A DNA stretch of 64,000 nucleotides from Flavobacteriaceae bacterium (GTDB lineage: Bacteria; Bacteroidota; Bacteroidia; Flavobacteriales; Flavobacteriaceae), in the NCBI GenBank assembly GCA_027490305.1, contig JAIXYI010000049.1, positions 1 through 64,000 of the forward strand, written 5' to 3'. This document shows, piece by piece, positions 21,792 to 46,697 of the stretch. The notes under the pieces are model-generated. The model worked only from the letters and a program-made list of their open reading frames with translations, did not search any database and had not been told where the DNA came from. The translations under genes and the position numbers were made by a program. The first letter of the stretch is position 1. Every line of letters begins with the position of its first letter.

Positions 21792-23075
21792 TTACTTTTT
21801 GGCGGGCTGACCCGAAGGTGCCTGGGTCGTGTTGGAAGTGGATTTCACCGGCGAGAGCGGTTTCTTTTCTTCTACCATATAATCGGTTATTTTAGAAATC
21901 CCGATACTGTGGTAATAGGTTTTGTATAAGGCACGCGAGAGGTTAGGGTCCATGTGGATCATCAGTCCGTAGGTCTTGGCGATACACTCTTTCTGTACGA
22001 ATTTCCACGAAATAGCGGTGAGGTGATAAGAGGTAATTCCGATCAGCACCAAAACGATGCTTGTATTCAGGCGATGGCCGTGGATGAAGCGGAACTGGAG
22101 GAGGAACAACAGGGAAGCGCCTGCGATCATGAGGACCGTTCCGCTTTCGCTCATGTATTTTGGCGCTATGAGGATGTTGGCGATGAGATAGACGGCGAAT
22201 ATGGCCAGGAGGATGAGTTCAGGCCAAGTGTGCCGTCCTGATACCGGATCGTTTTTTTTGGGGTTGTAAAGCTTGTCTCGGAAGCTCATGATGAGGGTCA
22301 CGAAAAAACCGAGGTAGGCCACGCAGAGAAAGATCCAGCTACCAAAGCAAAAGGTTTGGTTCAGGATGGCTAGCTTTTGTGACGCATCGAGATAGTCTTT
22401 CCATTTGGGCGACTCGAGAATGCGGTGCTTGGAGGCATAATACATTTCCGTGATCATCTTTTCCCGGAAGTCGGTGTCGTCAAAGGCGAGTAGCTTGAAC
22501 CCGAGGCTGTCGCGTACGGTTATCAGTCGGTCTGAATTCAAAGCATTGGGGCCAAAGAATTCGGTGAAGATTTGGGATTTCAGCACTTTTTTGGTATCGG
22601 CCAGGTCGGGCGTTTCCGGATCGGACGCCCAGGTCTTTTTCCATCCGAGATGCAGCGCATCGGGCTGGTCCATGAAGTTGTTGGAAACATTGGAGAAAAT
22701 GGCGCCCAGTATAAGGGAAAGAATAATTACGGTGGTACTTAACGATACGAGTTGGGCAAAACGGACCAGGCGTCCGACCAGCGCGCAGGACGTGCCTGTG
22801 GCGGTTCCATTGAAATAGTTGCGTATGAGCTTCCCGTAGTAGCGTGACAGGAACGAGGGGAATGACTCATTTTTGGTGTGGTGCCGAGGGTGGAGGTACA
22901 AAAGGAACAATAATGACGCCGACAAGACGAACAGGATGGCGAAACCCTGCACGAATGTGTCGCGTGACAGGCCTTCTTCAAAGTAATTTACAATCGAGAT
23001 TTCAAGTGTCATAAAAGTAAGGTATCGGTTCGTACTGCTAGGAAGTGGGCACCTGTTCGGAGAGGGTGCCGACAT
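21792..23075 (-). CDS. multi-pass membrane protein, unknown
   Basis: 427 aa, several hydrophobic helices; start may be internal (MTLEISIVNYFEEG). Confidence 0.75.
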   Translation of the reverse strand: MSAPSPNRCPLPSSTNRYLTFMTLEISIVNYFEEGLSRDTFVQGFAILFVLSASLLFLLYLHPRHHTKNESFPSFLSRYYGKLIRNYFNGTATGTSCALVGRLVRFAQLVSLSTTVIILSLILGAIFSNVSNNFMDQPDALHLGWKKTWASDPETPDLADTKKVLKSQIFTEFFGPNALNSDRLITVRDSLGFKLLAFDDTDFREKMITEMYYASKHRILESPKWKDYLDASQKLAILNQTFCFGSWIFLCVAYLGFFVTLIMSFRDKLYNPKKNDPVSGRHTWPELILLAIFAVYLIANILIAPKYMSESGTVLMIAGASLLFLLQFRFIHGHRLNTSIVLVLIGITSYHLTAISWKFVQKECIAKTYGLMIHMDPNLSRALYKTYYHSIGISKITDYMVEEKKPLSPVKSTSNTTQAPSGQPAKK

Positions 23076-23248
23076 TTCTCCAAAAGTAGGACGGTCTTTT
23101 TTCGTAACTATCAGGCGAACACCCGCACAACGAAAGGAATTTTCCTTTTCTTTGTATAGGGGAAACCCTATTAATCAGATTTTTACCAAAAACTACCTTT
23201 GGGCGTTTGTCATTGCAATTCAGTACGTCTAACCCATTACATACGATC

Positions 23249-23887
23249 ATGAAAACAAGCACACGACTTTTGCGCATCCAACCTAAAATGGTAAAAGAAC
23301 AGATGGACAACGCGCCGCAAATGGTGGACTTACCGCCGCGTACAAACTGTTCGAACAATGAGTTTATCCGGGACTACGACCGAGTGGCCACGGCTGCCCG
23401 TCCGGAGTGGCTGCGGCGGTTCGGATTTCGGGCCTGCGGCAACAAGGATGCAGAATACTGTATCATGCGTAGGCATCATATGACACCGGAAGCTTTTTGG
23501 TCGTGCCTTACCCGGGGTGGTGATGAGGATAATCCAAACGCCGTTTTATTCAACGTGGTAAAATGGGGGGATTTCCTCGCGCTTTTCCCCGAGATCGAGC
23601 AATTGTGTTATGAGAAGTACCTGAGTTTGGAACATAATGAATCCGGTAAACTCGTGTTTGATGTGGAAGCACATACTTTCGATAAGACCTGCTATTCCTT
23701 TCCTCTATTCCGTGCGATTGCAGATAATATAACTGACGTTACCGAAATTTGGTTCGCCAAAGGCCACTACACGTATAGTTTTGGTAAGGAGGTAGAAGTG
23801 ATCGATCCAAAAGTGCTGTTTATGGTGCGCCATGGTAACCGCGGATTCAATTTTTTCAACCTGAGCCAAGACCCTGCGTTTTTCTAA
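23249..23887 (+). CDS. hypothetical protein (cassette A, gene 1)
   Basis: ATG 23249 MKTSTRLLRIQPKMV...; distant similarity to the 31349-31939 product. Confidence 0.7.
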   Translation: MKTSTRLLRIQPKMVKEQMDNAPQMVDLPPRTNCSNNEFIRDYDRVATAARPEWLRRFGFRACGNKDAEYCIMRRHHMTPEAFWSCLTRGGDEDNPNAVLFNVVKWGDFLALFPEIEQLCYEKYLSLEHNESGKLVFDVEAHTFDKTCYSFPLFRAIADNITDVTEIWFAKGHYTYSFGKEVEVIDPKVLFMVRHGNRGFNFFNLSQDPAFF

Positions 23888-23890
23888 GAC

Positions 23891-24538
23891 GTGAGTTTCG
23901 AAATACTGAATCCGACCCGTTTATTGGTGTTTATCACCTTTTTTGTGTGCCTCATCGTGCGCCATCGCCATAAGAATAAGGCGTTTGAACTGGTTTTCAT
24001 TATCGTTTCGATCAGCGCCGCCAACGAGATATTGACGGCGGCACTCAGTTACCGGCACCATGCAACGTATGTGCTGAATAATCTCTACGTGATGGTGCAC
24101 GGCTGGATGTGGTTCCGGGTGATGAGACATTTGGTTTTGCGGTGGCGGAAGCTGCAGCTATCGGTTTCCATCGCCCTCCTTGTGTTTGGCATCGGGAATT
24201 TTTTTATAGGGGAAGGAATGCAGCATTTTGCTTTTTTTAACTTTATAGTAGGATCTATACTGTACGTGGCGACGTTCCTTTATGTGGCATTTGGAGCATT
24301 GCTGGAAGATGATTTTCTTTTTTTTAAACGGCGAGAGTTCCTGCTCCTGCTGGCGCCAATCCCGTATTACCTTCCCATGAGCATGGTTTTTGGTTTTGGC
24401 AGTAAGGAACTCCACTCTATGATTGTATTCGGACACATTACGTTCTACATGGCGCTTATCACATTTGTTAATTGCCTATATTACGGACTTATCCTGTTGT
24501 ATACCCATCTTGACAACAAATACCGACATAACACCTAA
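23891..24538 (+). CDS. multi-TM membrane protein (cassette A, gene 2)
   Basis: 215 aa; similar to the 30702-31337 product in sequence and hydropathy. Confidence 0.8.
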   Translation: MSFEILNPTRLLVFITFFVCLIVRHRHKNKAFELVFIIVSISAANEILTAALSYRHHATYVLNNLYVMVHGWMWFRVMRHLVLRWRKLQLSVSIALLVFGIGNFFIGEGMQHFAFFNFIVGSILYVATFLYVAFGALLEDDFLFFKRREFLLLLAPIPYYLPMSMVFGFGSKELHSMIVFGHITFYMALITFVNCLYYGLILLYTHLDNKYRHNT

Positions 24539-25280
24539 GCTCGCAACCGGTATCGTTGTAATTGTGCTGTTCTTCGGACTCGTGGCTTTGTTTTGCACAC
24601 TTCTGGTCCGATTGTATCGCCGACGCACGGCCGATTATTACAGGGAAAAACTGGAACACCAAAAACAACTCTCGGAGGCTACACTTGAAAGCCAGCGGCA
24701 GCTTATGGCCATTCTCGCGCGGGATTTTCACGACGATATCGGCCAACAACTGACGGTATTGAATTTCGGAATCGAACGATTGCGGCTGGATGCGCCACAA
24801 GAAGAATCAATGTGGGCAGGGTTTTCTGTTTCGTTGTCGAAAGCTTCCGAGGCTGTCCGGATGATCAGCCACACCTTGGGAAGCCTCGCCGAATCAGACC
24901 TGCCGGAAGCGATTCGGAGTGAAGCAATGCGTATACAGAGCTATTCCGGAATTGCCGTACGGGTAGAGGCTCCAGAGGGACAAAACTGGCAGGAAACGGA
25001 GAAAGTGGTGTTGTATCGTATTTTTCAGGAGTGTGTCAACAATGCGCTGAAACACGCCGAAGCCCGAACTATTTCTATTGAACTGGAACAAGAGCCCATC
25101 CCCCGTTTTCGATTCTGTGACGATGGGAGGGGTTTCGACGTAGACGCTGTTGAACGACACTCTTTCGGTCTCGATTCGATGACATCAAGGGCCTTACGCG
25201 CCGGTTATAGCCTGTCAATTGAAAGCAGTCTGGGCCATGGAACCTGTATCACGGCCACTAAAATGAGCAATAATGAGTAA
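24510..25280 (+). CDS. sensor histidine kinase, HisKA_3/NarX type (cassette A, gene 3)
   Basis: ARDFHDDIGQQLTVLNFGIERL; HATPase_c FRFCDDGRGFDVD; probable TTG start at 24510 (start uncertain; ORF open from 24423). Confidence 0.88.
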   Translation: MTTNTDITPKLATGIVVIVLFFGLVALFCTLLVRLYRRRTADYYREKLEHQKQLSEATLESQRQLMAILARDFHDDIGQQLTVLNFGIERLRLDAPQEESMWAGFSVSLSKASEAVRMISHTLGSLAESDLPEAIRSEAMRIQSYSGIAVRVEAPEGQNWQETEKVVLYRIFQECVNNALKHAEARTISIELEQEPIPRFRFCDDGRGFDVDAVERHSFGLDSMTSRALRAGYSLSIESSLGHGTCITATKMSNNE

Positions 25281-25926
25281 GGTAACAGTGGGTCTTATTG
25301 ATGACCACAGTATCGTAAGACAGGGCATCCGTGAGATACTGGAACGCCTGGGTGGCTATAAGGTAATTGTTGAATTTGAATCAGGAGAGGCGTTTTTGGA
25401 CGCGTATCCGCTCACGCCGTCACCCGACGTTTTGTTGCTTGACTACAGTATGAAGCGGCTTGACGGACTTGAGATCATCCGCCAATTGGCGCGACAGGAA
25501 AGCGACTTAAAGGTGGTTTTACTTACCCAGCATCTTGAAGAATCTGCAATAGCGGAAGCTTTTTACTTCGGTGCCAGAGGGTTCCTGACGAAAAATTGTA
25601 CGGCTTCGGAACTCAAAACCGCTATCGATAACGTTGTGACAATCGGCTATGTCGATTCTGTCGCCGCCATGCGTTACATGCGGGCCTATAAAACCCGGTC
25701 AAAAGAACCTTCTATCATATTGTCGGTGCGGGAAGCGAAGTTTCTGACACTCGTATGCGACCCAGCCGAGCTCACGTACGACCAGATTGCAGATCGGATG
25801 GGGGTTTCTGTAAAATCAGTCGAAGCATATCGCGCCAGCCTTTTCGATAAATATGACATTCGCTCGAAAACCGGACTTGTGATGTTTGCCTATCGGCACC
25901 GGTTGGTGGATGTGCCGAACAAATAG
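25273..25926 (+). CDS. LuxR/NarL-type response regulator (cassette A, gene 4)
   Basis: Receiver domain VGLIDDHSIVRQGIREIL, HTH YDQIADRMGVSVKSVEAYRASLFDKYDIRSKTGLV. Confidence 0.92.
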   Translation: MSKVTVGLIDDHSIVRQGIREILERLGGYKVIVEFESGEAFLDAYPLTPSPDVLLLDYSMKRLDGLEIIRQLARQESDLKVVLLTQHLEESAIAEAFYFGARGFLTKNCTASELKTAIDNVVTIGYVDSVAAMRYMRAYKTRSKEPSIILSVREAKFLTLVCDPAELTYDQIADRMGVSVKSVEAYRASLFDKYDIRSKTGLVMFAYRHRLVDVPNK

Positions 25927-26042
25927 GATAAGGAAAGCACGAGGTAATAGGGGAATAACCCTTGGAGGAGTCGGGGCTGATTACCCAATTACCTACGCAG
26001 TGAATAATAGAGTCCCTGTTCGTATGAGCCCTGCTCGTGATC

Positions 26043-26654
26043 TTATCTGTCCTGGGGGCTGCTTTGCTGGTACGACAATGCAAGATACTCATACATCTTG
26101 AAGTGGTAGGTCCATCGCTGACTCGCATACCTAAGGAAGGCGAAGCAGGATAACACCACCAAAAAAGGAATCATAATACCCGTTACAGTCCGGTAAAAAC
26201 AAAGGTATAGGCACAGCACGCAAAGTGATCGGAAAAATTTGGCATTTGCGAGGTGTTTTTCTAGTTCCGGAACCAGCGTTGGATGGTTGAACCGAAGTTG
26301 CGCTTCGGCGGTCTTGAAAAGATTGTCATGCAGCGGAACCTTTTCACTGATGAGACGCTCTGTTGCCTGGATGAAATCTTTGTATTTTTTTCGTTTATGA
26401 GCTTCGTAGGTCCTGACATATAGGGGATTCAATAGCATTGCACCAATATGATGCACGAAATGCCCGGCCACGTATGACGCCAAAATAAACACAAACCAAG
26501 AAAACACCGTAGGGCTGGCGCAGGTCACATCGATCATGGCCAGTTTTTCGGACCCGAAATAAGCGGGAAACGTGAGGCAAAAGACCGAGCCGGGGACAAT
26601 ATACGCGAGGAAGTCGACCAGTCCGAAAAACAAATCACCGGGTTTTACATTCAT
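26043..26654 (-). CDS. hypothetical membrane protein
   Basis: Internal start MNVKPGDLFFGLVDFLAYIVPGSVF; hydrophobic segments. Confidence 0.7.
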   Translation of the reverse strand: MNVKPGDLFFGLVDFLAYIVPGSVFCLTFPAYFGSEKLAMIDVTCASPTVFSWFVFILASYVAGHFVHHIGAMLLNPLYVRTYEAHKRKKYKDFIQATERLISEKVPLHDNLFKTAEAQLRFNHPTLVPELEKHLANAKFFRSLCVLCLYLCFYRTVTGIMIPFLVVLSCFAFLRYASQRWTYHFKMYEYLALSYQQSSPQDR

Positions 26655-26755
26655 GTTGTTTTTTTTTGGTTCTACGAAACGCGCCTTGTCTGCACCCATC
26701 CTTCCGAGCGGGTGGGGCTTTGTGCCAAAGATAGGATAAAGTCTGGGATGGGGGG

Positions 26756-27410
26756 CTGAGTCAATGAGCGCTTGAGTCCCTGAGCGCCTTAGTCCCTTAG
26801 TCCCTGAGCGTTCACCAACTACCCGCTACTGACTACTTCTGAAGCAACTGAGTTCCTGAGTCCCTGAGCGCCTGAGCGTCCAACCACTAACTACTAACTA
26901 CTAACTACTGACTACTGACTACTTTTAGAACCTCATGCGGCTCCGATTTCGAGCGAAGCCGAGAAATCTGCGTTATCCACACAGCATCCCGTCATTCCGA
27001 GCGCAGCGAGGAACCTCTACTACATGAAGGTGTGAGGTGTCCGTGAGTCCCTTAGTCCCTTAGCGCCTTAGTCCCTGAGCGTTCACCAACTACCAGCTAG
27101 TGACTACTTCTGAAGCAACTGAGTTCTTGAGTCCCTTAGTCCCTGAGCTCCTGAGCGTCCAACTGCCAACCAATGACTACTTCTGAAGCAACTGAGTAAC
27201 TGAGACTGCCAACCAACGACTGTCTACTCCTGTGACTGCGACTGTGACTGGCAACTAAACGGGATTCCTTCGCTGCGCTCGGAATGACAATGACCGCATA
27301 TGTGATATCATGTAACGAAGAAAGGTCCAAGTAAGTAAATATCACTGCCAACTGCGACTGCCAACTGCCCACTTCTGTGACTGAGACTGCGACTGAGACC
27401 GCGACTGCCT
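26756..27410. repeat. low-complexity intergenic repeat region (CTGAGTCCCTGAGCG / CAACTACCAACT / TGACTACTTCTGAAGCAACTGAG)
   Basis: ~100-bp block at about 26785-26885 recurs at about 27065-27165; a shorter copy at about 27177. Confidence 0.8.
26991..27288. repeat. inverted pair of GTCATTCCGAGCGCAGCGA elements
   Basis: GTCATTCCGAGCGCAGCGAGGAACC at 26991; reverse complement at 27261-27288. Confidence 0.8.
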
Positions 27411-27420
27411 CCTCGCTCCT

Positions 27421-27455
27421 AAAAAAAAACCGGGCTGTTTCCAACCCGGTTTTTC
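27421..27455 (-). terminator. Rho-independent terminator downstream of the rhodopsin gene
   Basis: AAAAAAAAACCGGGCTGTTTCCAACCCGGTTTTT. Confidence 0.85.
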
Positions 27456-27470
27456 ACTACAACAACAACC

Positions 27471-28196
27471 TTAGTCTTTCTGTGATTTGACCGCGAGGGT
27501 ATAGATCACCAGGCCAAATCCGATTTTGTTGATGGCGTCGGCGATGTTATACGCCACGTCTACGTTGCCTTTTCCGAGGATGCCGGTATACCAGCCGTCG
27601 GTGCCCAGCATGTAGCCGAGTGGGTAGATGGCCCATCCCACGAGTACGAACCAACACAGGATTTTGTGTGCTGCCAATACGTTGCCGCCTGCGGCTTGTG
27701 CCAGTTTTGAGGCCGAGCCGAGCCAGATTTCATACACAATGGCAAAATACGCGATACCGGAAACGAGGCCCCATAGCCATGCGTTGGCCGGATCGACCGC
27801 TTCTCCGAAGTAGCCCGTGATAAGCATGATAACCGAATAGAAGATCATTTTCCACAAGAGGCCCTGCTTGGCGCCGGCTACTTTGAGGATGAGGTAGAAC
27901 TCGAGGCACATCAACGGCACGGTCAGGATCCAGTCGACATAGCGGAAAAACGTCGGCGATTCCTGAAACGCGGCCCAGTAATCGCGCATGTAATAATAGT
28001 GTACGGCCGCAATAAACGTAATCAATCCGGAAACCAATACAGAGGTGCGCCACTTCTTGTCGAATTGGTTAAGGGACAGGAAAAAGAAAGCAGATGCCGC
28101 CATCATGGCCATGCATCCTACAAAAAAGGTAAATCCGATGTAGTCTGTTGGTAGCAGTTTCGACACGGTCATCGGAATCGTTGTTAAATGAATCAT
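27471..28196 (-). CDS. proteorhodopsin (light-driven H+ pump type)
   Basis: Helix C RYVDWILTVPLMCLEFYLIL (D88/T92/E99 = DTE motif), helix G ADAINKIGFGLVIY with retinal Lys224. Confidence 0.97.
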   Translation of the reverse strand: MIHLTTIPMTVSKLLPTDYIGFTFFVGCMAMMAASAFFFLSLNQFDKKWRTSVLVSGLITFIAAVHYYYMRDYWAAFQESPTFFRYVDWILTVPLMCLEFYLILKVAGAKQGLLWKMIFYSVIMLITGYFGEAVDPANAWLWGLVSGIAYFAIVYEIWLGSASKLAQAAGGNVLAAHKILCWFVLVGWAIYPLGYMLGTDGWYTGILGKGNVDVAYNIADAINKIGFGLVIYTLAVKSQKD

Positions 28197-28224
28197 GTGA
28201 CAAAGTTTTAAGGGTTACTAATTT

Positions 28225-28275
28225 TGTTTAATCAAAACTACGAAATCATTAAACACGAAATCGTTTTTGTTTAAT
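28225..28275. promoter_or_regulatory. divergent rhodopsin/blh promoter region with three TGTTTAAT octamers
   Basis: TGTTTAAT at 28225 and 28268, ATTAAACA at 28248; minus-strand TAGTTTTG at 28233-28240; plus-strand TATCTTTA at 28287. Confidence 0.5.
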
Positions 28276-28310
28276 GTTTTTTCAATTATCTTTAAACAAA
28301 ATTTATCAAG

Positions 28311-29219
28311 ATGCCGAAATACGCCCGTTTTGCGCTTGTTGCCAGCTTCGTAGGACTCTGGATCGATTCTTTTCTGTCGCATTCCGTTCAGGCGGTATTG
28401 GGGTTTGCGCTGATTTTTACGTTTGGGATCCTGCACGGGGCGAATGACTTGCAGCTTATCCGGCACACCGGCCCTTCTTTTCCGACCCGTGATCGCGGGC
28501 GGATGTGGGTCTATTATGTGGCGTTTGTGGGGGCGACCGCCGTGCTTTTTTACCTGATGCCGCGGGTGGCGCTGGTTTTGTTTATTATGTCAAGCGGTTA
28601 TCACTTCGGCGAACAGCATGTGTCGGCACATCTGGGCCGGGCGGTCGGCAAAGGAATCAGAACGGTGTTTTTCACGCTATACGGGCTGCTGGTGCTGTTC
28701 CTGGTTTTTTATTTCCATAAAGAAGAGGTGCAACAGATTGTGTTGGGGATTACACACGACCTTGTTCCGTTGGTGTTTTTTGGATGGGGTTTGGCGTTGG
28801 TGGGTAGTGGGGTCGCGCTTATGGGAATAGCATTAGGCATGCGGGACGCGGTGTTCCGGTCGGTGTGGGTGCGGGAACTTTTCTACCTGGGGGTGTTTGC
28901 CATCTTATTTAAGGTATCCGGACTGATCTGGGGCTTTGCGCTGTATTTCATTTTATGGCACAGCATACCTTCCCTGCGCGACCAACTTCGTTTTTTATAC
29001 GGTCGTACCGGAGTGGGGGAATGGAAGCAGTATTTGAAGCAAGCCCTCCCGTATTGGGGAATGGCATTGGCCGGACTTCTTACCTCCTATCTGCTGCTGC
29101 AGGACCAATTGGTGTTTGAACCGTTGTTTTTCTCCTTCCTGGCGGCGATTACCTTTCCGCATGTGTGGGTGATTTTGCGGATGTCGGAGGGGAGAGGGCC
29201 TGAATCCCTGAGTCCCTGA
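28311..29219 (+). CDS. blh: Brp/Blh family beta-carotene 15,15'-dioxygenase
   Basis: GILHGANDLQLI, SSGYHFGEQH, LWHSIPSLRDQ motifs; multi-TM; divergent from proteorhodopsin. Confidence 0.93.
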   Translation: MPKYARFALVASFVGLWIDSFLSHSVQAVLGFALIFTFGILHGANDLQLIRHTGPSFPTRDRGRMWVYYVAFVGATAVLFYLMPRVALVLFIMSSGYHFGEQHVSAHLGRAVGKGIRTVFFTLYGLLVLFLVFYFHKEEVQQIVLGITHDLVPLVFFGWGLALVGSGVALMGIALGMRDAVFRSVWVRELFYLGVFAILFKVSGLIWGFALYFILWHSIPSLRDQLRFLYGRTGVGEWKQYLKQALPYWGMALAGLLTSYLLLQDQLVFEPLFFSFLAAITFPHVWVILRMSEGRGPESLSP

Positions 29220-29251
29220 GCGTGCAACTACCAACTCCTAACCCCTGACTC

Positions 29252-29941
29252 CTAACTCCTAACCCCTCCCTTCTCGCTTTCTTCCAAAAACGGCGGTGTC
29301 AGTTTATTTCGGAAGGAAAAGAGCACCAGTCCGACTTTTGATTTGATCTGGTAGCGTTCGAACAGCGCAGTGCGATACGATTCGACGGATTTGACCGAAA
29401 CGTGCATCAGGTCGGCCATTTGTTCGTAGGTAAATTCGCGTTCGTCGCATACCAACGTTAGGAAGTGCATCTCCCGGTCAGAGAGCACGGGCTTTTTACT
29501 GTTTTTTTGTTTCGGATCGAAGTTCCGGACGCGCCTGAGGATATCGGTGATGTTATAGTATCCGACATTCACGACGGTATCGATGGCGTTTCGAAGCTCC
29601 TGGGCGGTGCAGTTCTTGTGCAGGAAGCCACGGGCGCCGAAATGATAGGCATCGTTGATGATGTCTTCGTCGAAGTGTTGGGTAAGAAGGAGCATTTTCG
29701 AATCATCTTCCCGCTCTTCAAGGGCGCGCAGGACGTCAATCCCATTTTTGTGGGGCATCGAGTAGTCGAGGAGGTACAGTTCAGGGGCATCCGAAAGGGG
29801 AAGGGCTTCCAAAAAGGCGTCTCCGTGTTCAAATTCATGACTCACCTTGAAGCGTCCCATTTTCTCAATCAATTCACGCAAGGCGTGCCGTACGATTTGG
29901 TGGTCGTCAATGATGCCAATCTTAATAGTCTCCATGTGCAT
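29252..29941 (-). CDS. LuxR/NarL-type response regulator (cassette B, gene 4)
   Basis: IGIIDDHQIVRHALRELIEKMGRFKV; HTH YEQMADLMHVSVKSVESYRTALFERYQIKSKVGLV. Confidence 0.92.
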   Translation of the reverse strand: MHMETIKIGIIDDHQIVRHALRELIEKMGRFKVSHEFEHGDAFLEALPLSDAPELYLLDYSMPHKNGIDVLRALEEREDDSKMLLLTQHFDEDIINDAYHFGARGFLHKNCTAQELRNAIDTVVNVGYYNITDILRRVRNFDPKQKNSKKPVLSDREMHFLTLVCDEREFTYEQMADLMHVSVKSVESYRTALFERYQIKSKVGLVLFSFRNKLTPPFLEESEKGGVRS

Positions 29942-30715
29942 TTAGGTAGGTGTTGCGGTTAGAGTTACGACGGTGCCTTCCCCTGGTGTCGTATCGATCT
30001 TGACTCCATAGCCAATTAACGCGGCGCGGCTGCGCAGGTTCTGTAACCCCAGGGTTCCGCCTGTTTGTATGAGGTTGCGATCAAAACCTTGGCCGTTGTC
30101 GCGTACCGTCAGGCGGAAAGGGGTGGTGTGGATGTCGACCGCGACCTTTGTGGCCCTGGCGTGTTTGAGGATGTTCTGGATACTTTCCTGAAAGATGCGG
30201 TAGATCACGATCTGGTGGCCCGGAGGAAGAGGGAGGTCGGGGTGACCGTGCGTGGTGTAGGTAAAAGAGATGGATTTCTGCCGGTTGAGCCGTTCGATTT
30301 CTTTTTCGATGGTTATGAAGAGGTCCTGGCTGCTGATAAGCTGGTAGTTCAGGGAATGGCTGATGCCCCGGATCGATTCCGATAGCTCGGATACGGCTTT
30401 GGAGATGGGTTCGAGCGACGGCGTGAGTTCGGGTGCGTCGAGTTTCAAATTCTCCAACTGGAAATTGAGGTAGGTCAGTTGTTGGCCCGCGTCGTCGTGA
30501 AGGTCTTGCGAGATATTGGTAAGCACTTGCTCCTGGGTTTCGATAATCGTGGTGGTAAGGGTCTTCTGGAAGTCGAGGTCTTTTTGGTAGAGCTGTGCGG
30601 TATAGGTGCGGATTTTCCGGAAGTAGAGACGGATGAGGATGACGCAAAAGACGATGATTTGCGTAAAAAAGAAAAGGCATATGACAATACCAAATACAAT
30701 ATTATGTTCCATCAT
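29942..30715 (-). CDS. sensor histidine kinase, HisKA_3 type (cassette B, gene 3)
   Basis: SQDLHDDAGQQLTYLNFQLENL; LTVRDNGQGFDRN; internal start MMEHNIVFG. Confidence 0.9.
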   Translation of the reverse strand: MMEHNIVFGIVICLFFFTQIIVFCVILIRLYFRKIRTYTAQLYQKDLDFQKTLTTTIIETQEQVLTNISQDLHDDAGQQLTYLNFQLENLKLDAPELTPSLEPISKAVSELSESIRGISHSLNYQLISSQDLFITIEKEIERLNRQKSISFTYTTHGHPDLPLPPGHQIVIYRIFQESIQNILKHARATKVAVDIHTTPFRLTVRDNGQGFDRNLIQTGGTLGLQNLRSRAALIGYGVKIDTTPGEGTVVTLTATPT

Positions 30716-31337
30716 GTCTTTGTTTTTCACGGTACATAAAGATGGCTGTCGTGATGTAATACACCGCATTTACAAAATAACACACTAAGGTGAAAAACGG
30801 AACTCCATATATTGGCATAGTATTGATCCCCTTAAGTTTAAACCCCATAAGCAAACTAAACCCTACAAAAAACACGATGGGCGCCGATAATAGGGTGTAG
30901 GTGTTTGAAGAGAAGTAGGCAAGGTCTTCACTTTTAAGTCGCTCCATACTGTCGGCAATCATCCAATATGTGTACATAACGGCACCTATCACAAGGCTGT
31001 ATACCTTGAAGTTATGGAGACCTGGTTCAAGGACGATAAAATCGAAAACGCAAAAGGCAAGATAGGTTTTTATTAAGCGTCGCCCGGTTTTACGTCTTCC
31101 TGAGGTAGTGCTGAGAAGAGAAAGCCACAGCATACAATGGACAACATTGTAGAAACTTGCGCTTAACTGTAGTGGCAATTCCAATAGCTTTAGTAGGGTC
31201 GATAAGAGCTCATTCGTTAGGTTCAGTGCCAGTATATAAAACAAATAAACATGGTGCTTATTTCTTTTGTCGTGATGGAATGCCCAGTAGACGAAGGAAA
31301 GAAGCACCACAATTTTTATGGGATTGATAATCTGCAA
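30702..31337 (-). CDS. multi-TM membrane protein (cassette B, gene 2)
   Basis: 211 aa; NPIKIVVLLSF..., paralogue of the 23891-24538 product. Confidence 0.8.
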   Translation of the reverse strand: MQIINPIKIVVLLSFVYWAFHHDKRNKHHVYLFYILALNLTNELLSTLLKLLELPLQLSASFYNVVHCMLWLSLLSTTSGRRKTGRRLIKTYLAFCVFDFIVLEPGLHNFKVYSLVIGAVMYTYWMIADSMERLKSEDLAYFSSNTYTLLSAPIVFFVGFSLLMGFKLKGINTMPIYGVPFFTLVCYFVNAVYYITTAIFMYREKQRHDGT

Positions 31338-31348
31338 TATATCGTCGA

Positions 31349-31939
31349 TTATGTTGGGTCGTCACTCATGTCATAGTAGAATCTGGTGCCCTGTCCGATT
31401 GAATTAATGAATTCAACATGAAAGACAATGCGCCTGACCTGATTAAACTTTCCACGCTGCCGGATCACGATGTTACCCCACGTAAAGTGAATGAACGTTG
31501 GTACACCCGCGTTGACACGTATGCGGGGAATCGCCTCAAACAAAATCGTAGGATACAGGCTTTCCGTGTTGCGGTAGTCGTCGCTGCGCCGAAGGCTCAT
31601 TTGGCTGCCATTTATATCAAAGCCCAGATAGCCATCATAGCAACTCATATTGTTGTCGGAAAGAAACTTCATCAGATCGCTCCACGAGAAGGAATATACC
31701 GGGTTGTTCGTGATACCCGACATGAGTTGGTCATACGCGGCTTTGTCAAGCACGTTGTGACGTAACTCGGATGTAGCCTGCATCGACGGGTCACAAGATA
31801 CGGCTAAAGGGTGTAAGGCTTTAAAGTCATCATAGTCGTCCTTGCCTAACGCTTTCGTAAAGTTCGCCTGTTCGCCAAGGAATGCCACCCAGTCTGGTGC
31901 TTGGGTATTACCAGTTGGAAAATTTGCTGCTGTTTTCAT
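31349..31939 (-). CDS. hypothetical protein (cassette B, gene 1)
   Basis: MKTAANFPTGNTQAPDW...; same position and similar length as cassette A gene 1. Confidence 0.7.
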   Translation of the reverse strand: MKTAANFPTGNTQAPDWVAFLGEQANFTKALGKDDYDDFKALHPLAVSCDPSMQATSELRHNVLDKAAYDQLMSGITNNPVYSFSWSDLMKFLSDNNMSCYDGYLGFDINGSQMSLRRSDDYRNTESLYPTILFEAIPRIRVNAGVPTFIHFTWGNIVIRQRGKFNQVRRIVFHVEFINSIGQGTRFYYDMSDDPT

Positions 31940-32198
31940 AATGAGAACCATTTTAGGATTGTTACCGCCAAGTTCATCAAATGCCGTCGAAGCCCGACTA
32001 GGTAAAACCCTATTCTTTTAACCCGGTTTTGCCTATTAAAGGAGAGGCCTCAAAAATAGGTAAAATATTTTGACAAATCCGGTATTTGCTGGTTTTTAGT
32101 TGATTAGATATAAACCTACTCGTTATTCAGGGTTTTCCCCACCTCCTCAGCATCGCCGTGCCGCTAGCTTTGGAGCATCAATCCTAAACCCATTCCTC

Positions 32199-32822
32199 AT
32201 GAAACGACTGGTATTTTTACTCCTGCTCATTGGCCTGACGTCTTCGGCCTATTCACTTAATGGTTCCGATACCGTAAAGGTGTCCAATCCACCCTTACCC
32301 CAAAAAATCGAAGTGACGTTAAAAACCGCCGATGCGGCGGCCAAAACACCCGCGCCCTGCCCCGATTGCTGCCCGCCCGTTCAGGGGATCAATGCCAGCG
32401 TACTGGTATGGATGCCTGTAATCCTCTTTATCGTAGTGCTTTTTGTGGTGTGGTGGACGACACGCAGGTCGGGTTTTCGTTTCACCCAGGCGCTGTACGA
32501 GAACGATCCCGAGGAGATTATTGTTCACGCGCCAACTGAAGCCGACCCGAATGCCACACTGAAAAAGACGGTGCTGGATGCCAAAGGGCAACCTGTTTAC
32601 CAACCCAGCACAAGCCGACTGATCGCACTGCTGTCGGCCCTGACAACATTGATTATCGTCGTGTGCTTTATTTCCTATTACGCGTATTGTATGATCCGCT
32701 GTAAAGAACTGCCCGATTTCGAAGCGCTGTTCAACGTGGTGTTGGCACTCGGTCTGGGCGTGGTGCCGTATAGTGTGAATAAAGTAACAGCGGCGGCAAA
32801 GGCGTCCGACACGTCAAAATAA
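32199..32822 (+). CDS. exported/membrane hypothetical protein
   Basis: Signal peptide MKRLVFLLLLIGLTSSAYS, additional TM helices. Confidence 0.7.
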   Translation: MKRLVFLLLLIGLTSSAYSLNGSDTVKVSNPPLPQKIEVTLKTADAAAKTPAPCPDCCPPVQGINASVLVWMPVILFIVVLFVVWWTTRRSGFRFTQALYENDPEEIIVHAPTEADPNATLKKTVLDAKGQPVYQPSTSRLIALLSALTTLIIVVCFISYYAYCMIRCKELPDFEALFNVVLALGLGVVPYSVNKVTAAAKASDTSK

Positions 32823-32866
32823 TCAGGTTCCCTTTTAAATTATTGTTTCATTTAATCTATTACGTT

Positions 32867-33358
32867 ATGTCAAACCTTGCAATCGGAACGATCATTTCCT
32901 CTGTCCTGAATTTTGATCAATTGTGTAAAGTTCTGGGCGAAACGCCCGCATTCAACAGTAAAACTTCCTCGTATGCGCCTTGCGACGGACGCTCGGTCAC
33001 CGGCTCAAAGCTGGAACTTGCCACCGGCCGTGAGATAGCGCTTAGTCCGGACTTGCGTGGCCGCTTCATACGTGGCCTTAACCAGATCTATAGCGTCGAT
33101 GCACCTATATTTGATATCCACAAGGCGGATGAAGACGGCGCGGGGCGGAAGCCCGGTGATTACCAACCCGACGCAGTAGCCCGCCACACACACTCGTATA
33201 CGGATCGGCAGGAGGGTGTGGGGCCGAACCAGGCGGATGACGGGAATGATATCGGTTTCAACCGGGTAGATACCAAGACTACTGGAGAAAACACTGATGC
33301 TTGCAACGAAACGCGCCCGCGGAACGTGTCGACCTTTTTCTACATCAAAATCAACTAA
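32867..33358 (+). CDS. phage tail-collar-like protein
   Basis: APCDGRSV...PDLRGRFIRGLN...HTHSYT...ETRPRNVSTFFYIKIN resembles the C-terminal end of tail-collar/fibre proteins. Confidence 0.65.
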   Translation: MSNLAIGTIISSVLNFDQLCKVLGETPAFNSKTSSYAPCDGRSVTGSKLELATGREIALSPDLRGRFIRGLNQIYSVDAPIFDIHKADEDGAGRKPGDYQPDAVARHTHSYTDRQEGVGPNQADDGNDIGFNRVDTKTTGENTDACNETRPRNVSTFFYIKIN

Positions 33359-33362
33359 AGCC

Positions 33363-34667
33363 ATGCGACATAAAACGTTGCTCTTCGCACTGATACTAAT
33401 GGTGGCGAAGGGCGCATCGCAGGATGCTCTTACTGGAGTTGAGACGACGGAGTTGATTTCAAACGCTTTTTCAAAAATACATACCGGCCATGCAGCGGAT
33501 AACCAGGGAACCTTTGGCTCACTTGACCTGACTAAAACAGAGGCAATCGTGACGTCTTCGTTTTCAATAGGTAAAGGCGGTGATATTCTCACGGCTAAGT
33601 TCAAAGGAGGGGTCACAGATGGATTGGCCGCTGTGTTCAATAATTCCAAATTAAATACCAATCAGTCCCTTGAGGTGCTGTACCATATGCTAATTTCGGA
33701 TAGACCTTTTATAGGTTATTATCATACCGATCTTATGAAAAAAAGACAGTCGGAGCTCAAGGCTGAACTGGACTACTTTGATCACCTGTATACGTATTTG
33801 CAGACTAAAGGTCTCTTGGGAGCTGTGGAAAGAGCGTTGAAAATCAGGCGTGATGCTATCCAAGTGGAGGGTCCGTTCTCCGCAAAGATTATAGAAATAA
33901 AGTTAGTGAATGAAGCGCTACGGAACCATGTTGACAATAACCTTCCGGGTGCCATATTGCCGGCATGGTTTGAACTACGAATGTTAGAAGGTAATAAGAA
34001 AGCGGAGGCCCTTCGTCAGAATGATAAGGCAATCAAACCCTCCCAATTCCATTTGACATGGATGTCGGTTGGGATAAATGCCCGGAACGACGAATTTCGA
34101 CTGTTCGATACCGACGCACCTTTTGAAGACGCTATTCGCAAAGAGCAGAAACTCGGTTACGGATTTTCACTACAGATTTCTTCCTATCGCTTTTCCGAAA
34201 ACGACAACAACTGGTATTGGGCTTTAGTAGCGAATCACCAACACAAAAGTAATTATCTCGACCTGAAAAAGATGGATGTTACGGAAACAGTAACACGGGG
34301 TACGGGCGATAATGTGACTAGGGAGACTTCAAAGAAATATACGGTGTACTCGGGAGACTATATTTCCGACGTCGGTGAGACGACCCTGAACGCCGATTAC
34401 TTTTATTTCTATAAGAATGCACATTTCGTTGGCTTACATGCTTTTTCAAATGCTGCGTTTTCGGAGAAAAAGAAGCCGATTTACAACCTGGGTTTCGGCC
34501 TTGTAGTGCCCTTCAAAGACAAACAAAACAAAGACACGATAGTCAACGCAGAACTTTACTATACGATCAAGAATCTTATGGGTATCGATGACAATCGGTA
34601 CAGCGTTTTAGAACGCAACGAAATCGGATTTCGCTTTACCTTTCCTTTTCAATTTAATACTTTTTGA
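33363..34667 (+). CDS. exported hypothetical protein
   Basis: Signal peptide MRHKTLLFALILMVAKGASQ; 435 aa. Confidence 0.75.
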   Translation: MRHKTLLFALILMVAKGASQDALTGVETTELISNAFSKIHTGHAADNQGTFGSLDLTKTEAIVTSSFSIGKGGDILTAKFKGGVTDGLAAVFNNSKLNTNQSLEVLYHMLISDRPFIGYYHTDLMKKRQSELKAELDYFDHLYTYLQTKGLLGAVERALKIRRDAIQVEGPFSAKIIEIKLVNEALRNHVDNNLPGAILPAWFELRMLEGNKKAEALRQNDKAIKPSQFHLTWMSVGINARNDEFRLFDTDAPFEDAIRKEQKLGYGFSLQISSYRFSENDNNWYWALVANHQHKSNYLDLKKMDVTETVTRGTGDNVTRETSKKYTVYSGDYISDVGETTLNADYFYFYKNAHFVGLHAFSNAAFSEKKKPIYNLGFGLVVPFKDKQNKDTIVNAELYYTIKNLMGIDDNRYSVLERNEIGFRFTFPFQFNTF

Positions 34668-37697: not shown

Positions 37698-37819
37698 GGA
37701 AGCGAAGATACGGTAAATGTTAAATTTTATAAAGTGATGAGGCCTACTTTCCTACTAATAACGAGGCTTCCCGAAAAAAACACGACGAAAAGCGTTTCCG
37801 AAATCGATTTTTTTTCGAT

Positions 37820-37846
37820 TTGCTACGCGCAACCTATTTGCTTTTG
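37820..37846 (+). promoter_or_regulatory. putative promoter of LRR copy 1 (TTG-N16-TGCTTTTG)
   Basis: Aligned with the copy 2 promoter; -7 box deviates from TAnnTTTG. Confidence 0.5.
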
Positions 37847-37883
37847 TCTATCTAAACAACACAAACGCTTAAACAAAACAGCT

Positions 37884-40721
37884 ATGAACAAACTTCGCCT
37901 CTTCCTGTTTCTTGCGCCATTGTGGTGTTTTTCCCAGAATGTCGTGTTTGCCGATCCCAACCTTAAAGCGATTCTAACTTCTCCGGAAGCGGGCTATGTT
38001 TCGGCCTTTTCTTTTAATGATGAACCAATGGCGATCGACGCAAACGGCGACGGTGAAATCCAGGTGTTGGAGGCGGAAGCCGTGGCCCGACTGGGCGTTT
38101 TTTACGGCAATATAACCAGTTTAGAGGGCCTTCAGGCCTTTGCCAATCTGAAGTCACTTGATCTGTTTGGACTCTATCTCAGCGGAGGATCGTTCGATTT
38201 TTCGGTGTTCACCAATCTCGAGTTGTTGACGGCATCCTATTGCCAATTAGGATCTGTGACCCTGGCCAATATGAACGCATTGCATACCGCCTACCTGAGC
38301 ACCAACCAACTGACATCCGTCAGCCTGACGAATCTTCCGATATTGAAGCATCTTGACCTTTCTTCAAATGGCCTGCAAACAGTTGAATTTGTGAATCTTC
38401 CGCAACTGTATACGTTAGGTTTAACGGCCAACCAACTGTCGACCCTGTCGCTGTCGAACATGCCGTTGCTGATCGAAATAAATGTATCGCAGAACCAACT
38501 ATCCACGCTTGACGTATCGGGCTTACCGCAGCTTCAGAACCTTTTTGCGGATTACAACCAACTTACTTCGCTGGATGTTTCACAAAACCCTGCACTTGTC
38601 GGGTTGTACGTGCAGCAGAACCTCCTGACAGAATTGACGGTTTCGGGACTCCCACAGTTATACCAGTTGGCGGCTGGCCAAAATCTCCTTACTTCGGTAA
38701 CGTTAGAGGCACTTCCTTCCCTTACCGGGCTCGATTTATCGAACAACCAATTGACCTCGGTGGACCTTTCAGGCGCGCCAAACATCCAGAATCTGTTCCT
38801 CGCTTCGAACGACCTGGCAAGCCTGGATCTCTCGGCTAATCCAACGATTGTGTCGCTGGAATGTTCCGGAAACCAATTGTCGACGCTCGACATCTCGAAT
38901 CTCACCTCGCTATCGTATTTGGGTTGTGGATACAACCAATTGACGCAGTTAGACCTGCCGGAGTCGCTCTACCTGTATCAGGTAAGTTGTGGATCGAACC
39001 AACTGACCACGCTGGATGTTTCAGGGTACCAATACCTATTTACCCTTGACGTGTCTAACAACCAAATCGCTACACTGGATCTTGGCGGACTATATAACCT
39101 CGGCGACATTCATGTGGAAGGCAACCAATTCGTGAACCTTGATTTCGCCGACAATAGTTACGCCTTTACGATTACGTTTCTTCCGAACGATCTGCTGCAG
39201 ACAGTTAACCTAAAAAACAACGGCTACCAGAGTCCATACTTTGTGTACAACGATTATACGAATGCGCCCGCCTTGCAATTTATCTGCGTGGATGCCTTCG
39301 AACAGGCGGAATTCCAATACTACATCCAGGCACTCAATCCGAATATCATCGTGAACGGTTATTGCTCGTTCGATTTGTCGGGTGAATACAATATCATCAG
39401 CGGAACGGTTCGTTTTGACTTCAACAATGATGGCTGTTCGGAGACGGATACCGCTGTGCCCTATGCAAAAGTGGTCATTTCCGACGGGGAAGTCGACGGT
39501 GCTACGTTCACCGACGGCAATGGTTTCTATTCGTTTGTGGTGCCAGACGGAAATTATACCTTCTCAATCGACGCGGAGACTTACCCAGGATTCACCGTTT
39601 CAGCCGGTGCGTCGACCGCTTCCTTTGACGAGAATACCTTTTCAGGCTCTATCAACAGCGATATCTGCCTGCAGCCAACCTCAGCGTTGTTCGACGGTGA
39701 GGTTACGGTATTGCCGTACTCAATTCCCTATTACGGCTTTGAAAGCTACTACATGATCAACGTGCGCAACAAAGGCAACCAGTTGCTATCGGGCAATGTG
39801 GTGTTCAATTATGATGCCGCCGCCGCCGTTGCCACAAGTGCCTTTCCGGTTGTCGATGCGGTTGGAGTGGGCACCTTGACGTTCAACATCGAGAACCTGC
39901 TGCCGTTCGAAACCCGCACGATTTATGTCGGATTGACCTATAATACCAGCGAGTCGGAGAATGTATGGGAAGAAGCCGAACCTATTTCATTCGAAGCGAT
40001 TTTCAACGTCACACAACCTGAGGCGACTCCGGAAGACAACGTATTCTCGTTCGTGCAGCCACTGGGTGAGGACGCCGTTGTAGAGAATGCCGTATATTGT
40101 ATGGAAGGCGAGGAAGTGGATCCAACTGAAATCGGCGACTACCTGCATTACACCATCAACTTCCGTAACACCGGAGGCGAAACCGCACCGTTCGTGGCGC
40201 TCAAGTCGGACATCGACCCCGATCAGTTCGACATCAACTCGATCGAAATCCTGAATACGACTATGCCGGCCCAAATTAAAGTGGTAGGCAATATGCTGGA
40301 ACTGGTATTTGAAGACGCGCAGCTACAGCCCGGAGGCGAAGGAAGCGTATTGCTTCGCATGAAGTCGAAAGAGACCCTGCAGCCAGGCGATACCGTCGAA
40401 TTCGGAACCGCGGTGTATCTCGACTATGATGAGATGGTGCAGACGAATATGGCCCAAACCACATTCACAGCGTCACTTGGGAACGATGATTTCACTACCG
40501 GATCGTTTACGGTGTATCCCAACCCAGCGAAGGACCGTTTCCGCATCCAGTCGTCATCACCGGTTCGCAGCGTGGCACTATATGACATCCAGGGGCGTAA
40601 ACTCCGCGATCTCAACTACACCGAAGAAGGCGTATCGGTTGAAGGCGTTCCGACCGGCGTCTATTTTGTAAAAGCTACCACCGAGGCCGGCCCTGCCGTG
40701 ACCAAATTGGTGAAACAATAA
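37884..40721 (+). CDS. secreted leucine-rich repeat protein with EF-hand-like loop and T9SS type A sorting domain (copy 1)
   Basis: Signal peptide MNKLRLFLFLAPLWCFSQ; ~21-aa LRRs; DUF7619-like domain; YPNPAKDRFRIQSSSPVRSVALYDIQGRKL...VYFVKATTEAG. Confidence 0.93.
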   Translation: MNKLRLFLFLAPLWCFSQNVVFADPNLKAILTSPEAGYVSAFSFNDEPMAIDANGDGEIQVLEAEAVARLGVFYGNITSLEGLQAFANLKSLDLFGLYLSGGSFDFSVFTNLELLTASYCQLGSVTLANMNALHTAYLSTNQLTSVSLTNLPILKHLDLSSNGLQTVEFVNLPQLYTLGLTANQLSTLSLSNMPLLIEINVSQNQLSTLDVSGLPQLQNLFADYNQLTSLDVSQNPALVGLYVQQNLLTELTVSGLPQLYQLAAGQNLLTSVTLEALPSLTGLDLSNNQLTSVDLSGAPNIQNLFLASNDLASLDLSANPTIVSLECSGNQLSTLDISNLTSLSYLGCGYNQLTQLDLPESLYLYQVSCGSNQLTTLDVSGYQYLFTLDVSNNQIATLDLGGLYNLGDIHVEGNQFVNLDFADNSYAFTITFLPNDLLQTVNLKNNGYQSPYFVYNDYTNAPALQFICVDAFEQAEFQYYIQALNPNIIVNGYCSFDLSGEYNIISGTVRFDFNNDGCSETDTAVPYAKVVISDGEVDGATFTDGNGFYSFVVPDGNYTFSIDAETYPGFTVSAGASTASFDENTFSGSINSDICLQPTSALFDGEVTVLPYSIPYYGFESYYMINVRNKGNQLLSGNVVFNYDAAAAVATSAFPVVDAVGVGTLTFNIENLLPFETRTIYVGLTYNTSESENVWEEAEPISFEAIFNVTQPEATPEDNVFSFVQPLGEDAVVENAVYCMEGEEVDPTEIGDYLHYTINFRNTGGETAPFVALKSDIDPDQFDINSIEILNTTMPAQIKVVGNMLELVFEDAQLQPGGEGSVLLRMKSKETLQPGDTVEFGTAVYLDYDEMVQTNMAQTTFTASLGNDDFTTGSFTVYPNPAKDRFRIQSSSPVRSVALYDIQGRKLRDLNYTEEGVSVEGVPTGVYFVKATTEAGPAVTKLVKQ

Positions 40722-43880: not shown

Positions 43881-44035
43881 GAGAAAGGCGCACTCTGGTA
43901 AGGCGCTGTCATTTTTTTCCTATTTTTGGACGACAAGGTGCCCCCTTTTTACGATTAATGACCTACCTCTTCCCTGTGCAAGTGAACGTCCGGCGACGGA
44001 TGTTCCCCGTTCGCCTAACCAATGCCAGAACGCAC

Positions 44036-45955: not shown

Positions 45956-46611
45956 CATCGAAACGCTATAAAGTATTGATTGCGGACGACCACCAGTTGT
46001 TTATCCAGGGACTGAAACTGATCTTAAAGGAAGAGTTGGATATCGTTGAGGTCGATCATGCGCTCGACGGGAGGGAAGCGATCGAGAAGGTCCGCCGTAA
46101 CAACTATGATGTCGTATTGCTTGATGTGAACATGCCCGTTATCGACGGAGTGGAAGCGGCCGCCGAGATACGACGGCATTCATCGACGATAAAGGTGCTG
46201 GTCGTCAGTATGTTTTCGGATATGGACACCGCCGGTCGGATTCTTGAGGCCGGAGCAGACGGCTTCCTGATTAAGAATGCCGATGCGTCGGAGTTCCGGC
46301 AGGCGTTCGACGCGGTCTTCCGGGATGAGATTTACCTCTCGCCCGGTGTTTCTGATTTGTTCACCCGCGACCGCAATGGCAAGATCATCGTCAGAAGCGA
46401 ATTCGTCCAGTTTACCAAAAGCCTGGTGAGTAAGCGCGAGAAAGCCATCCTAAAGATGATTGCCGAAGGCCATACCAGTCATTTCATCGCAGAAGCCCTG
46501 CATCTTTCGGCTAAGACGGTCGATACGCATCGCAATAATATGCTGGCCAAACTCGGCCTGCCCAATAGCGCTGCCCTGGTGCGTTTTGCAATCGAAAACA
46601 AGCTGATTTGA
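45949..46611 (+). CDS. LuxR-type response regulator
   Basis: VLIADDHQLFIQGLKLILKE receiver; HTH HFIAEALHLSAKTVDTHRNNMLAKLGL; overlaps the kinase stop. Confidence 0.93.
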   Translation: MLTSKRYKVLIADDHQLFIQGLKLILKEELDIVEVDHALDGREAIEKVRRNNYDVVLLDVNMPVIDGVEAAAEIRRHSSTIKVLVVSMFSDMDTAGRILEAGADGFLIKNADASEFRQAFDAVFRDEIYLSPGVSDLFTRDRNGKIIVRSEFVQFTKSLVSKREKAILKMIAEGHTSHFIAEALHLSAKTVDTHRNNMLAKLGLPNSAALVRFAIENKLI

Positions 46612-46623
46612 TTAGCTGGTTTT

Positions 46624-46678
46624 CCTGAAATTACAGGAATTTATGTATTTCCTGCGCCCGCCCGATGCCGTACGTTTA
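46624..46678 (+). promoter_or_regulatory. putative promoter/operator of giant gene 1
   Basis: CCTG-AAATTA-CAGG inverted repeat, TATTTCC-N18-TACGTTTA, also present at 56543-56598. Confidence 0.5.
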
Positions 46679-46697
46679 CATTCTAAAATACGGCGAA

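What the first reader, a model, noticed from the sequence alone, without database searches (positions are those of the whole stretch)
23249..31939. Two inverted, paralogous four-gene cassettes bracket the rhodopsin/blh pair
Cassette A (+, 23249-25926) and cassette B (-, 31939-29252) share order and size: small soluble protein, multi-TM protein, HisKA_3 kinase, LuxR regulator. Both are about 2.7 kb. The membrane proteins are clearly related (NPxRLLVFITFF/NPIKIVVLLSF N-termini, LYYGLILLYTHLDNKYRHNT vs VYYITTAIFMYREKQRHDGT C-termini), as are the kinases and regulators. Gene 1 similarity is weaker. The cassettes face inward around a proteorhodopsin/Blh locus, which suggests an ancient inverted duplication or a recurrent sensory module. 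A link to light sensing or rhodopsin expression is inference.
Basis: partly seen in the sequence, partly recalled or inferred. Interest (0 to 1): 0.8.

Follow-up and report, generated by a model that had tools for sequence, protein, structure and literature searches.

The report
Self-regulating sensor operon, two divergent copies
The two look-alike gene sets around the rhodopsin genes are real copies of an undescribed four-gene signalling operon of Flavobacterium and its relatives, which has nothing visible to do with light, appears to switch on itself and a variable set of genes facing away from it, and has fast-changing front-end sensor genes.

Summary
In detail: two paralogous four-gene cassettes (small protein, 7-TM protein, HisKA_3 kinase, LuxR-type regulator) face inward at 23249-25926 (+) and 31939-29252 (-). 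All four gene pairs are homologous, gene 1 too (leave-out profile, E 1e-19 to 1e-21).

A and B are not each other's nearest relatives, so this is no recent in-place inverted duplication. The rhodopsin link is coincidence: of 400 genomes of the genus, 50 carry the cassette, 99 a rhodopsin and 12 both (12.4 expected), never side by side outside this genome; no operator lies near rhodopsin/blh.

The cassette is a conserved operon (about 60 loci, strict order, mainly Flavobacterium). A palindrome, TAGGGWWWWCCCTA, precedes gene 1 and sits at -42.5 from a TAnnTTTG -7 box, an activator position. Many loci carry a mirror-image operator-promoter for a divergent operon of variable genes (small membrane proteins, caspases, DyP peroxidases, proteases, tail-collar-like), so the regulator probably activates both sides. 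Between close relatives gene 1, often gene 2, is hypervariable (50-59% identity where kinase and regulator exceed 93%). Best reading: an autoregulated accessory-sensor two-component module with a diversifying sensor. The signal is unknown. I found no published description.

The parts
23249..23887 (+). A1: gene 1 of cassette A, small fast-evolving protein (212 aa, no signal peptide here)
   Evidence: ORF; leave-out profile match E 7e-21
23891..24538 (+). A2: gene 2, 7-TM protein (215 aa)
   Evidence: 25% identity to B2, E 4e-20; leave-out profile 4e-48
24423..25280 (+). A3: HisKA_3 histidine kinase with one N-terminal TM and no sensor domain (ORF start; the true start is more likely near TTG 24510)
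   Evidence: Pfam HisKA_3, HATPase_c; 36% identity to B3
25273..25926 (+). A4: NarL/LuxR-type response regulator
   Evidence: Pfam Response_reg, GerE; 52% identity to B4
31349..31939 (-). B1: gene 1 of cassette B (196 aa)
   Evidence: leave-out profile match 3e-19; AlphaFold2 model pLDDT 82
30702..31337 (-). B2: gene 2, 7-TM protein (211 aa)
   Evidence: AlphaFold2 model pLDDT 94 with seven long helices
29942..30769 (-). B3: HisKA_3 histidine kinase, one TM
   Evidence: Pfam
29252..29941 (-). B4: NarL/LuxR-type response regulator
   Evidence: Pfam Response_reg, GerE just below cut-off; sister to L053 regulator, 100/99
23157..23170 (+). Operator A, TAGGGGAAACCCTA
23194..23201 (+). -7 box TACCTTTG of cassette A, TTTG 34 bp from operator centre
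   Evidence: whole pattern matched
31999..32012 (-). Operator B, TAGGGTTTTACCTA, cassette side
   Evidence: the box at the expected place is GAACTTGG, non-canonical
32022..32035 (-). Weak inner operator-like site, 23 bp from operator B
   Evidence: score 2.9, weak
32105..32118 (+). Inner operator-like site of the divergent side, TAGATATAAACCTA
   Evidence: score 11.5
32128..32141 (+). Outer operator-like site of the divergent side, CAGGGTTTTCCCCA (weak by itself)
   Evidence: score 4.2; TTTG at offset 34; 23 bp from the inner site
32165..32172 (+). -7 box TAGCTTTG facing the divergent genes
32202..32822 (+). Divergent gene 1 of cassette B: TM protein, homologues divergent to cassettes in L062 and L090
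32867..33358 (+). Divergent gene 2: phage tail-collar-like protein, homologues divergent to cassettes in L106 and L108
33363..34667 (+). Divergent gene 3: unknown protein (434 aa)
   Evidence: no family match
21792..23075 (-). Gene divergent to cassette A: multi-TM protein (427 aa); no clear operator-promoter of its own
27471..29219 (.). Rhodopsin (-) and blh (+): NOT part of the system

Best explanation
Each cassette is one autoregulated signalling operon. Gene 1 and the 7-TM gene 2 form the sensing unit for a membrane histidine kinase (gene 3) that has one TM helix and no sensor domain of its own; the kinase phosphorylates the LuxR-type regulator (gene 4). The regulator binds TAGGGWWWWCCCTA, alone or as pairs about 22-23 bp apart, centred at -42.5, and activates its own operon (positive feedback) and, at many loci including B here, a divergent operon of variable genes with an effector or envelope look. 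Shown by sequence: operon order, homology, 7-TM model, operator, its fixed spacing to the -7 box, mirror-image promoters, hypervariable gene 1/gene 2. Inferred: who binds whom, activation rather than repression, the signal and the effector role. A and B are two separate lineages of this operon in one genome; their position around rhodopsin is accidental.
For: Strict gene 1 - gene 2 - kinase - regulator order in 14 same-genus or same-order loci and about 60 loci of Flavobacterium, Chryseobacterium, Epilithonimonas, Pustulibacterium and Neptunitalea. 52 of 62 TAGGN6CCTA sites in 1.02 Mb lie just upstream of gene 1, about 180-fold. TTTG begins 33-34 bp from the palindrome centre in about 26 of 39 proximal sites; distal sites show the same spacing on the other strand (15 sites at 33-34); the flavobacterial -7 box is TAnnTTTG at -12 to -5 (PMC9723704), which puts the centre at -42.5. 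The operator-promoter pattern occurs in 31 of 50 cassette-bearing genomes against 6 of 50 without, p 3e-7, often as outward-facing pairs. Upstream neighbour divergent in 49 of 55 loci against 122 of 276 controls; 33 of 38 after removing close relatives, p 4e-7. Gene 2 model: seven long helices, pLDDT 94. Kinase and regulator domains.
Against: No binding or expression data. About a third of cassettes lack a good operator (though L061 and L092 have theirs before an extra gene 1 copy). In the window, B's cassette-side -7 box is non-canonical, B's divergent outer operator is weak by itself, and cassette A shows no clear divergent operator-promoter. Sister regulators in three loci are paired with a different, longer kinase and no gene 1/2, so the operator could predate the cassette. 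Gene 1 and gene 2 do not always vary together, which weakens a strict ligand-receptor pairing.
Confidence: 0.68

Rival explanations
1. Polymorphic self-recognition or quorum-type system: gene 1 is the (often lipid-anchored or exported) signal or recognition protein, gene 2 its 7-TM receptor, and variants define groups that do not cross-activate, as in Bacillus ComQXPA; the divergent genes are the group-specific response.
For: Gene 1, and in several pairs gene 2, fall to 46-80% nucleotide identity between flanks of 90-99%; in L077/L079 dS falls 2.24, 1.25, 0.34, 0.11 along the operon, which suggests replaced or long-kept alleles. Positive autoregulation fits. ComX and the ComP membrane part are likewise variable and ComA conserved (PMC4008528).
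Against: Gene 1 can change with gene 2 nearly constant (L068/L113: 59% and 96%) and the reverse (L085/L088: 83% and 53%). About 24 of 61 gene 1 products, A1 and B1 among them, show no export signal. Gene 1 is a 180-270 aa folded protein, not a short pheromone precursor.
Confidence: 0.2
2. Envelope-stress or attack surveillance module, like LiaFSR: gene 2 and gene 1 sense damage by phage, toxins or competitors; diversification of gene 1/2 reflects an arms race with the attacker, and the divergent genes are defensive.
For: Sensor-less one-TM HisKA_3 kinase with separate membrane partner and NarL-type regulator is the LiaFSR layout; weak LiaS match. Divergent operons include caspases, DyP peroxidases, subtilase, matrixin, DNA methylase. 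Independent variation of genes 1 and 2 fits outside pressure.
Against: No PADLOC match. Divergent genes also include housekeeping ones in some lineages. No LiaF domain.
Confidence: 0.3
3. Light- or rhodopsin-linked regulation.
For: Physical closeness in this one genome only.
Against: Chance-level co-occurrence, no closeness elsewhere, no operator in the rhodopsin/blh stretch, no retinal-binding lysine pattern in gene 2.
Confidence: 0.02
4. Recent inverted duplication of one cassette around the rhodopsin genes.
For: Inverted arrangement and same order.
Against: Proteins only 24-52% identical; B sister to another species' copy, A on a separate long branch; different divergent genes.
Confidence: 0.04

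Closest known systems
LiaF-LiaS-LiaR (Bacillus/Streptococcus three-component system)
   Same: Membrane partner protein, HisKA_3 kinase without a sensor domain, NarL/LuxR-type regulator, autoregulated
   Different: LiaF family not matched by gene 2 (no Pfam hit); gene 2 is a 7-TM protein; an extra fast-evolving gene 1; divergent target operon
UhpC-UhpB-UhpA (Enterobacterales)
   Same: Separate polytopic membrane sensor, UhpB-type kinase (NCBIfam UhpB match E 1.6e-24, below cut-off), LuxR-type regulator
   Different: UhpC is a 12-TM transporter-like protein (own knowledge); gene 2 has seven TM helices and no MFS match
ComQXPA (Bacillus quorum sensing)
   Same: Four same-strand genes ending in HisKA_3 kinase and LuxR-type regulator; front half hypervariable, back half conserved (PMC4008528)
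   Different: No ComQ or ComX homologue; TM part is a separate gene; gene 1 is a folded protein of about 200 aa; Gram-negative hosts

Membership tests
LiaFSR | HisKA_3 kinase with little or no extracytoplasmic sensor domain | tested here: met
   One N-terminal TM, then HisKA_3 and HATPase_c
LiaFSR | LiaF-family membrane protein | tested here: not met
   No LiaF or other Pfam family over cut-off in any of 16 gene 2 proteins
LiaFSR | LiaS equivalog | tested here: not met
   49.4 bits against cut-off 450
UhpABC | MFS-type UhpC sensor | tested here: not met
   Seven helices, no Pfam match
UhpABC | UhpB equivalog | tested here: not met
   86.6 bits against cut-off 408
ComQXPA | ComQ isoprenyl transferase and ComX precursor | tested here: not met
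   No Pfam match for gene 1 or gene 2
ComQXPA | Hypervariable signal/receptor part, conserved kinase/regulator | tested here: met
Microbial rhodopsin (gene 2) | PF01036 match and TM7 Schiff-base lysine | tested here: not met
   No match; lysine in the TM7 part examined only at position 183 (4 of 53) and at its far end, 203; Foldseek hits to rhodopsins not significant (E above 1)
NarL/LuxR response regulator | REC plus GerE domains | tested here: met
   (B4's GerE at 23.1 bits, just under the 23.5 cut-off)
Autoregulated two-component operon | Regulator binds its own promoter | not testable with these tools
   Operator conservation and spacing only

The most novel reading that the evidence does not exclude
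A polymorphic recognition system of Bacteroidota: fast-diversifying gene 1 and 7-TM receptor variants define compatibility or attacker-specific types, and a conserved kinase-regulator pair switches on a divergent, interchangeable effector operon (caspases, peroxidases, proteases, membrane proteins).
Probability: 0.25. Interest if true: 0.85.

Novelty: new variant of a known kind. Interest (0 to 1): 0.6.

Why it matters
Genes 1 and 2 belong to no described family, yet form a conserved operon in about one in eight genomes of the genus sampled (50 of 400). The sharp contrast between hypervariable sensor genes and conserved kinase, regulator and promoters marks a sensor under diversifying pressure, rarely described for two-component systems outside Gram-positive quorum sensing. 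The precise operator lets candidate targets be read from sequence in any carrier, so regulon and signal become directly testable.

Tried and rejected
Rhodopsin/light link: tested by co-occurrence, closeness, operator scan and TM7 lysine; rejected. In-place inverted duplication: rejected by the tree, though A's own place is unresolved. Homology of gene 2 or gene 1 to solved structures: no significant sequence or fold match. Known defence systems: no PADLOC match. A fixed partner gene in the flanks: none; flanks are lineage-specific. Wider regulon in F. soli and CYK-55 genomes: many extra palindromes, but many share longer repeated flanks, so they were not counted as targets. The hhalign comparison is circular (A1 is in the profile) and is not used.
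Full report
OBSERVATION. The eight genes exist as described. Each pair is homologous: regulators 52%, kinases 36%, membrane proteins 25%. The weak gene 1 pair was tested with a profile built from other genomes without A1 or B1: A1 E 7e-21, B1 E 3e-19, no shuffled copy among the hits. Genes 1 and 2 match no curated family in Pfam, NCBIfam, PADLOC or PHROGs.

DISTRIBUTION. In the window's own genome only these two copies of gene 2 exist. A search of 199 relatives found 13 other same-genus genomes and one of another family with a convincing match, and these loci have the order gene 1, gene 2, kinase, regulator. A scan of named genomes gave about 60 cassettes in Flavobacterium, Chryseobacterium, Epilithonimonas, Pustulibacterium and Neptunitalea; the Neptunitalea loci have extra gene 1 (and in L092 gene 2) copies. 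In 400 genomes of the genus, 50 carry gene 2; only the window's genome has two. More distant regulators (40-47% identity) pair with kinases without gene 1/2, and three close ones (L082, L089, L115) with a 514-654 aa kinase instead.

RHODOPSIN. In the same 400 genomes 99 have a rhodopsin and 12 have both, against 12.4 expected. In the 11 other genomes with both, the two lie on different contigs, or 425 kb apart (G262). No cassette locus has rhodopsin or blh in its fetched flanks. The operator is absent from 26.7-29.25 kb of the window. Gene 2 is a 7-TM protein but has no rhodopsin match and no consistent TM7 lysine.

ORIGIN OF THE PAIR. In the regulator tree B is sister to Flavobacterium sp. 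BFFFF1 (100/99); A is a long branch of uncertain place, not joined to B. The two are distinct lineages of the operon; ancient duplication or separate acquisition cannot be told apart.

PROMOTERS. Upstream of gene 1 lies TAGGGWWWWCCCTA: 52 of 62 such sites in 1.02 Mb fall in the upstream windows. Relative to the palindrome centre, TTTG begins at 33-34 bp in about 26 of 39 loci. As the flavobacterial sigma-A -7 box is TAnnTTTG at -12 to -5 (PMC9723704), the palindrome is centred at -42.5, an activator position (inference). A second palindrome near -180 to -205 shows the same spacing on the opposite strand, towards a divergent gene. Some loci have further copies 21-23 bp away. The complete pattern is found in 31 of 50 cassette-bearing genomes and 6 of 50 without, and the matches in the latter mostly lack the W core. 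The palindrome weight matrix was derived from these loci, so its enrichment there is partly by construction; the TTTG spacing, the strand mirror and the cassette-free genomes are independent checks.

WINDOW PROMOTERS. A: operator 23157-23170 with TACCTTTG at 23194-23201, exact spacing. B, cassette side: operator 31999-32012, box GAACTTGG (non-canonical). B, divergent side: CAGGGTTTTCCCCA 32128-32141 with TAGCTTTG 32165-32172, exact spacing, and an inner site 32105-32118, facing the genes at 32202-34667. A's divergent side has no good promoter of this type. One more strong operator in the genome (C1:52315) precedes a TM protein plus DNA/RNA non-specific endonuclease; in genome G128 one precedes a 481 aa probable lipoprotein at exact spacing.

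DIVERGENT GENES. 49 of 55 loci have a divergent upstream neighbour (controls 122 of 276; 33 of 38 after thinning, p 4e-7). These genes differ between loci, but some families recur in loci of different surroundings: caspases (L057, L069), DyP peroxidases (L062, L074), tail-collar-like proteins (window, L106, L108), TM proteins (window, L062, L090). Others are a subtilase, a matrixin, a DNA methylase, and ordinary enzymes. An effector role is inference.

HYPERVARIABILITY. Median pairwise identities over all loci: gene 1 20%, gene 2 33%, kinase 51%, regulator 64%. In close pairs the contrast is sharper: regulator 97% with gene 1 53-59% (L068/L113, L075/L113) or gene 2 53% (L085/L088). Nucleotide profiles drop abruptly at gene 1 between well-conserved flanks. 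dS is also raised in gene 1, so replaced or long-kept alleles are likelier than fast point change alone; no dN/dS above 1 was seen. Genes 1 and 2 do not always change together.

MECHANISM. The kinase has one TM and no sensor domain, so gene 2, with gene 1, is the likely sensing part, as in LiaFSR or UhpABC; membership in those families was tested and not met. 37 of 61 gene 1 products have a lipoprotein or other hydrophobic N-terminus, 24 (A1 and B1 included) do not (crude rule). Signal and direction of gene 1/2 action are unknown.

LIMITS. Gene calls are simple ORFs; start codons uncertain (A3 probably begins near 24510). Several loci are metagenome bins; loci are related, so counts are not independent. 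No experiment supports binding. Literature searches found no description, but only open-access papers were searched.

Noticed in passing
window 43958-46611 (+): A third, more distant two-component pair (665 aa HisKA_3-type kinase and LuxR-type regulator, 26-31% to cassettes A and B) just before very long ORFs.
   Followed up: no
window 46665-55802 and 56619-63998 (+); 37734-40721 and 40985-43825 (+): Two pairs of tandem large paralogues: very long ORFs (3045 aa and an open one of about 2450 aa) 64% identical, and about 950 aa ORFs 75% identical.
   Followed up: no
window 26043-26699 (-): Membrane protein with a weak match to the Csx27 family (E 5e-4, far below cut-off); probably chance.
   Followed up: partly
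L169-L175 (F. soli), L176-L181 (Flavobacterium sp. CYK-55): Dispersed intergenic repeats carrying the TAGGGWWWWCCCTA palindrome with longer shared flanks, several beside type I restriction or HNH genes.
   Followed up: partly
L092:4683-7570 and L091:6135-7575 (Neptunitalea), L061: Extra tandem copies of gene 1 (and gene 2 in L092) upstream of one kinase-regulator pair; in L061 and L092 the operator lies before an extra gene 1 copy.
   Followed up: partly
L082, L089, L115: Same regulator family paired with a 514-654 aa kinase and without gene 1/2: apparent swap of the sensing part.
   Followed up: partly
L036, upstream of 7347: A short ORF of about 45 codons with a signal-like start lies between the operator and gene 1 in F. 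soli.
   Followed up: no
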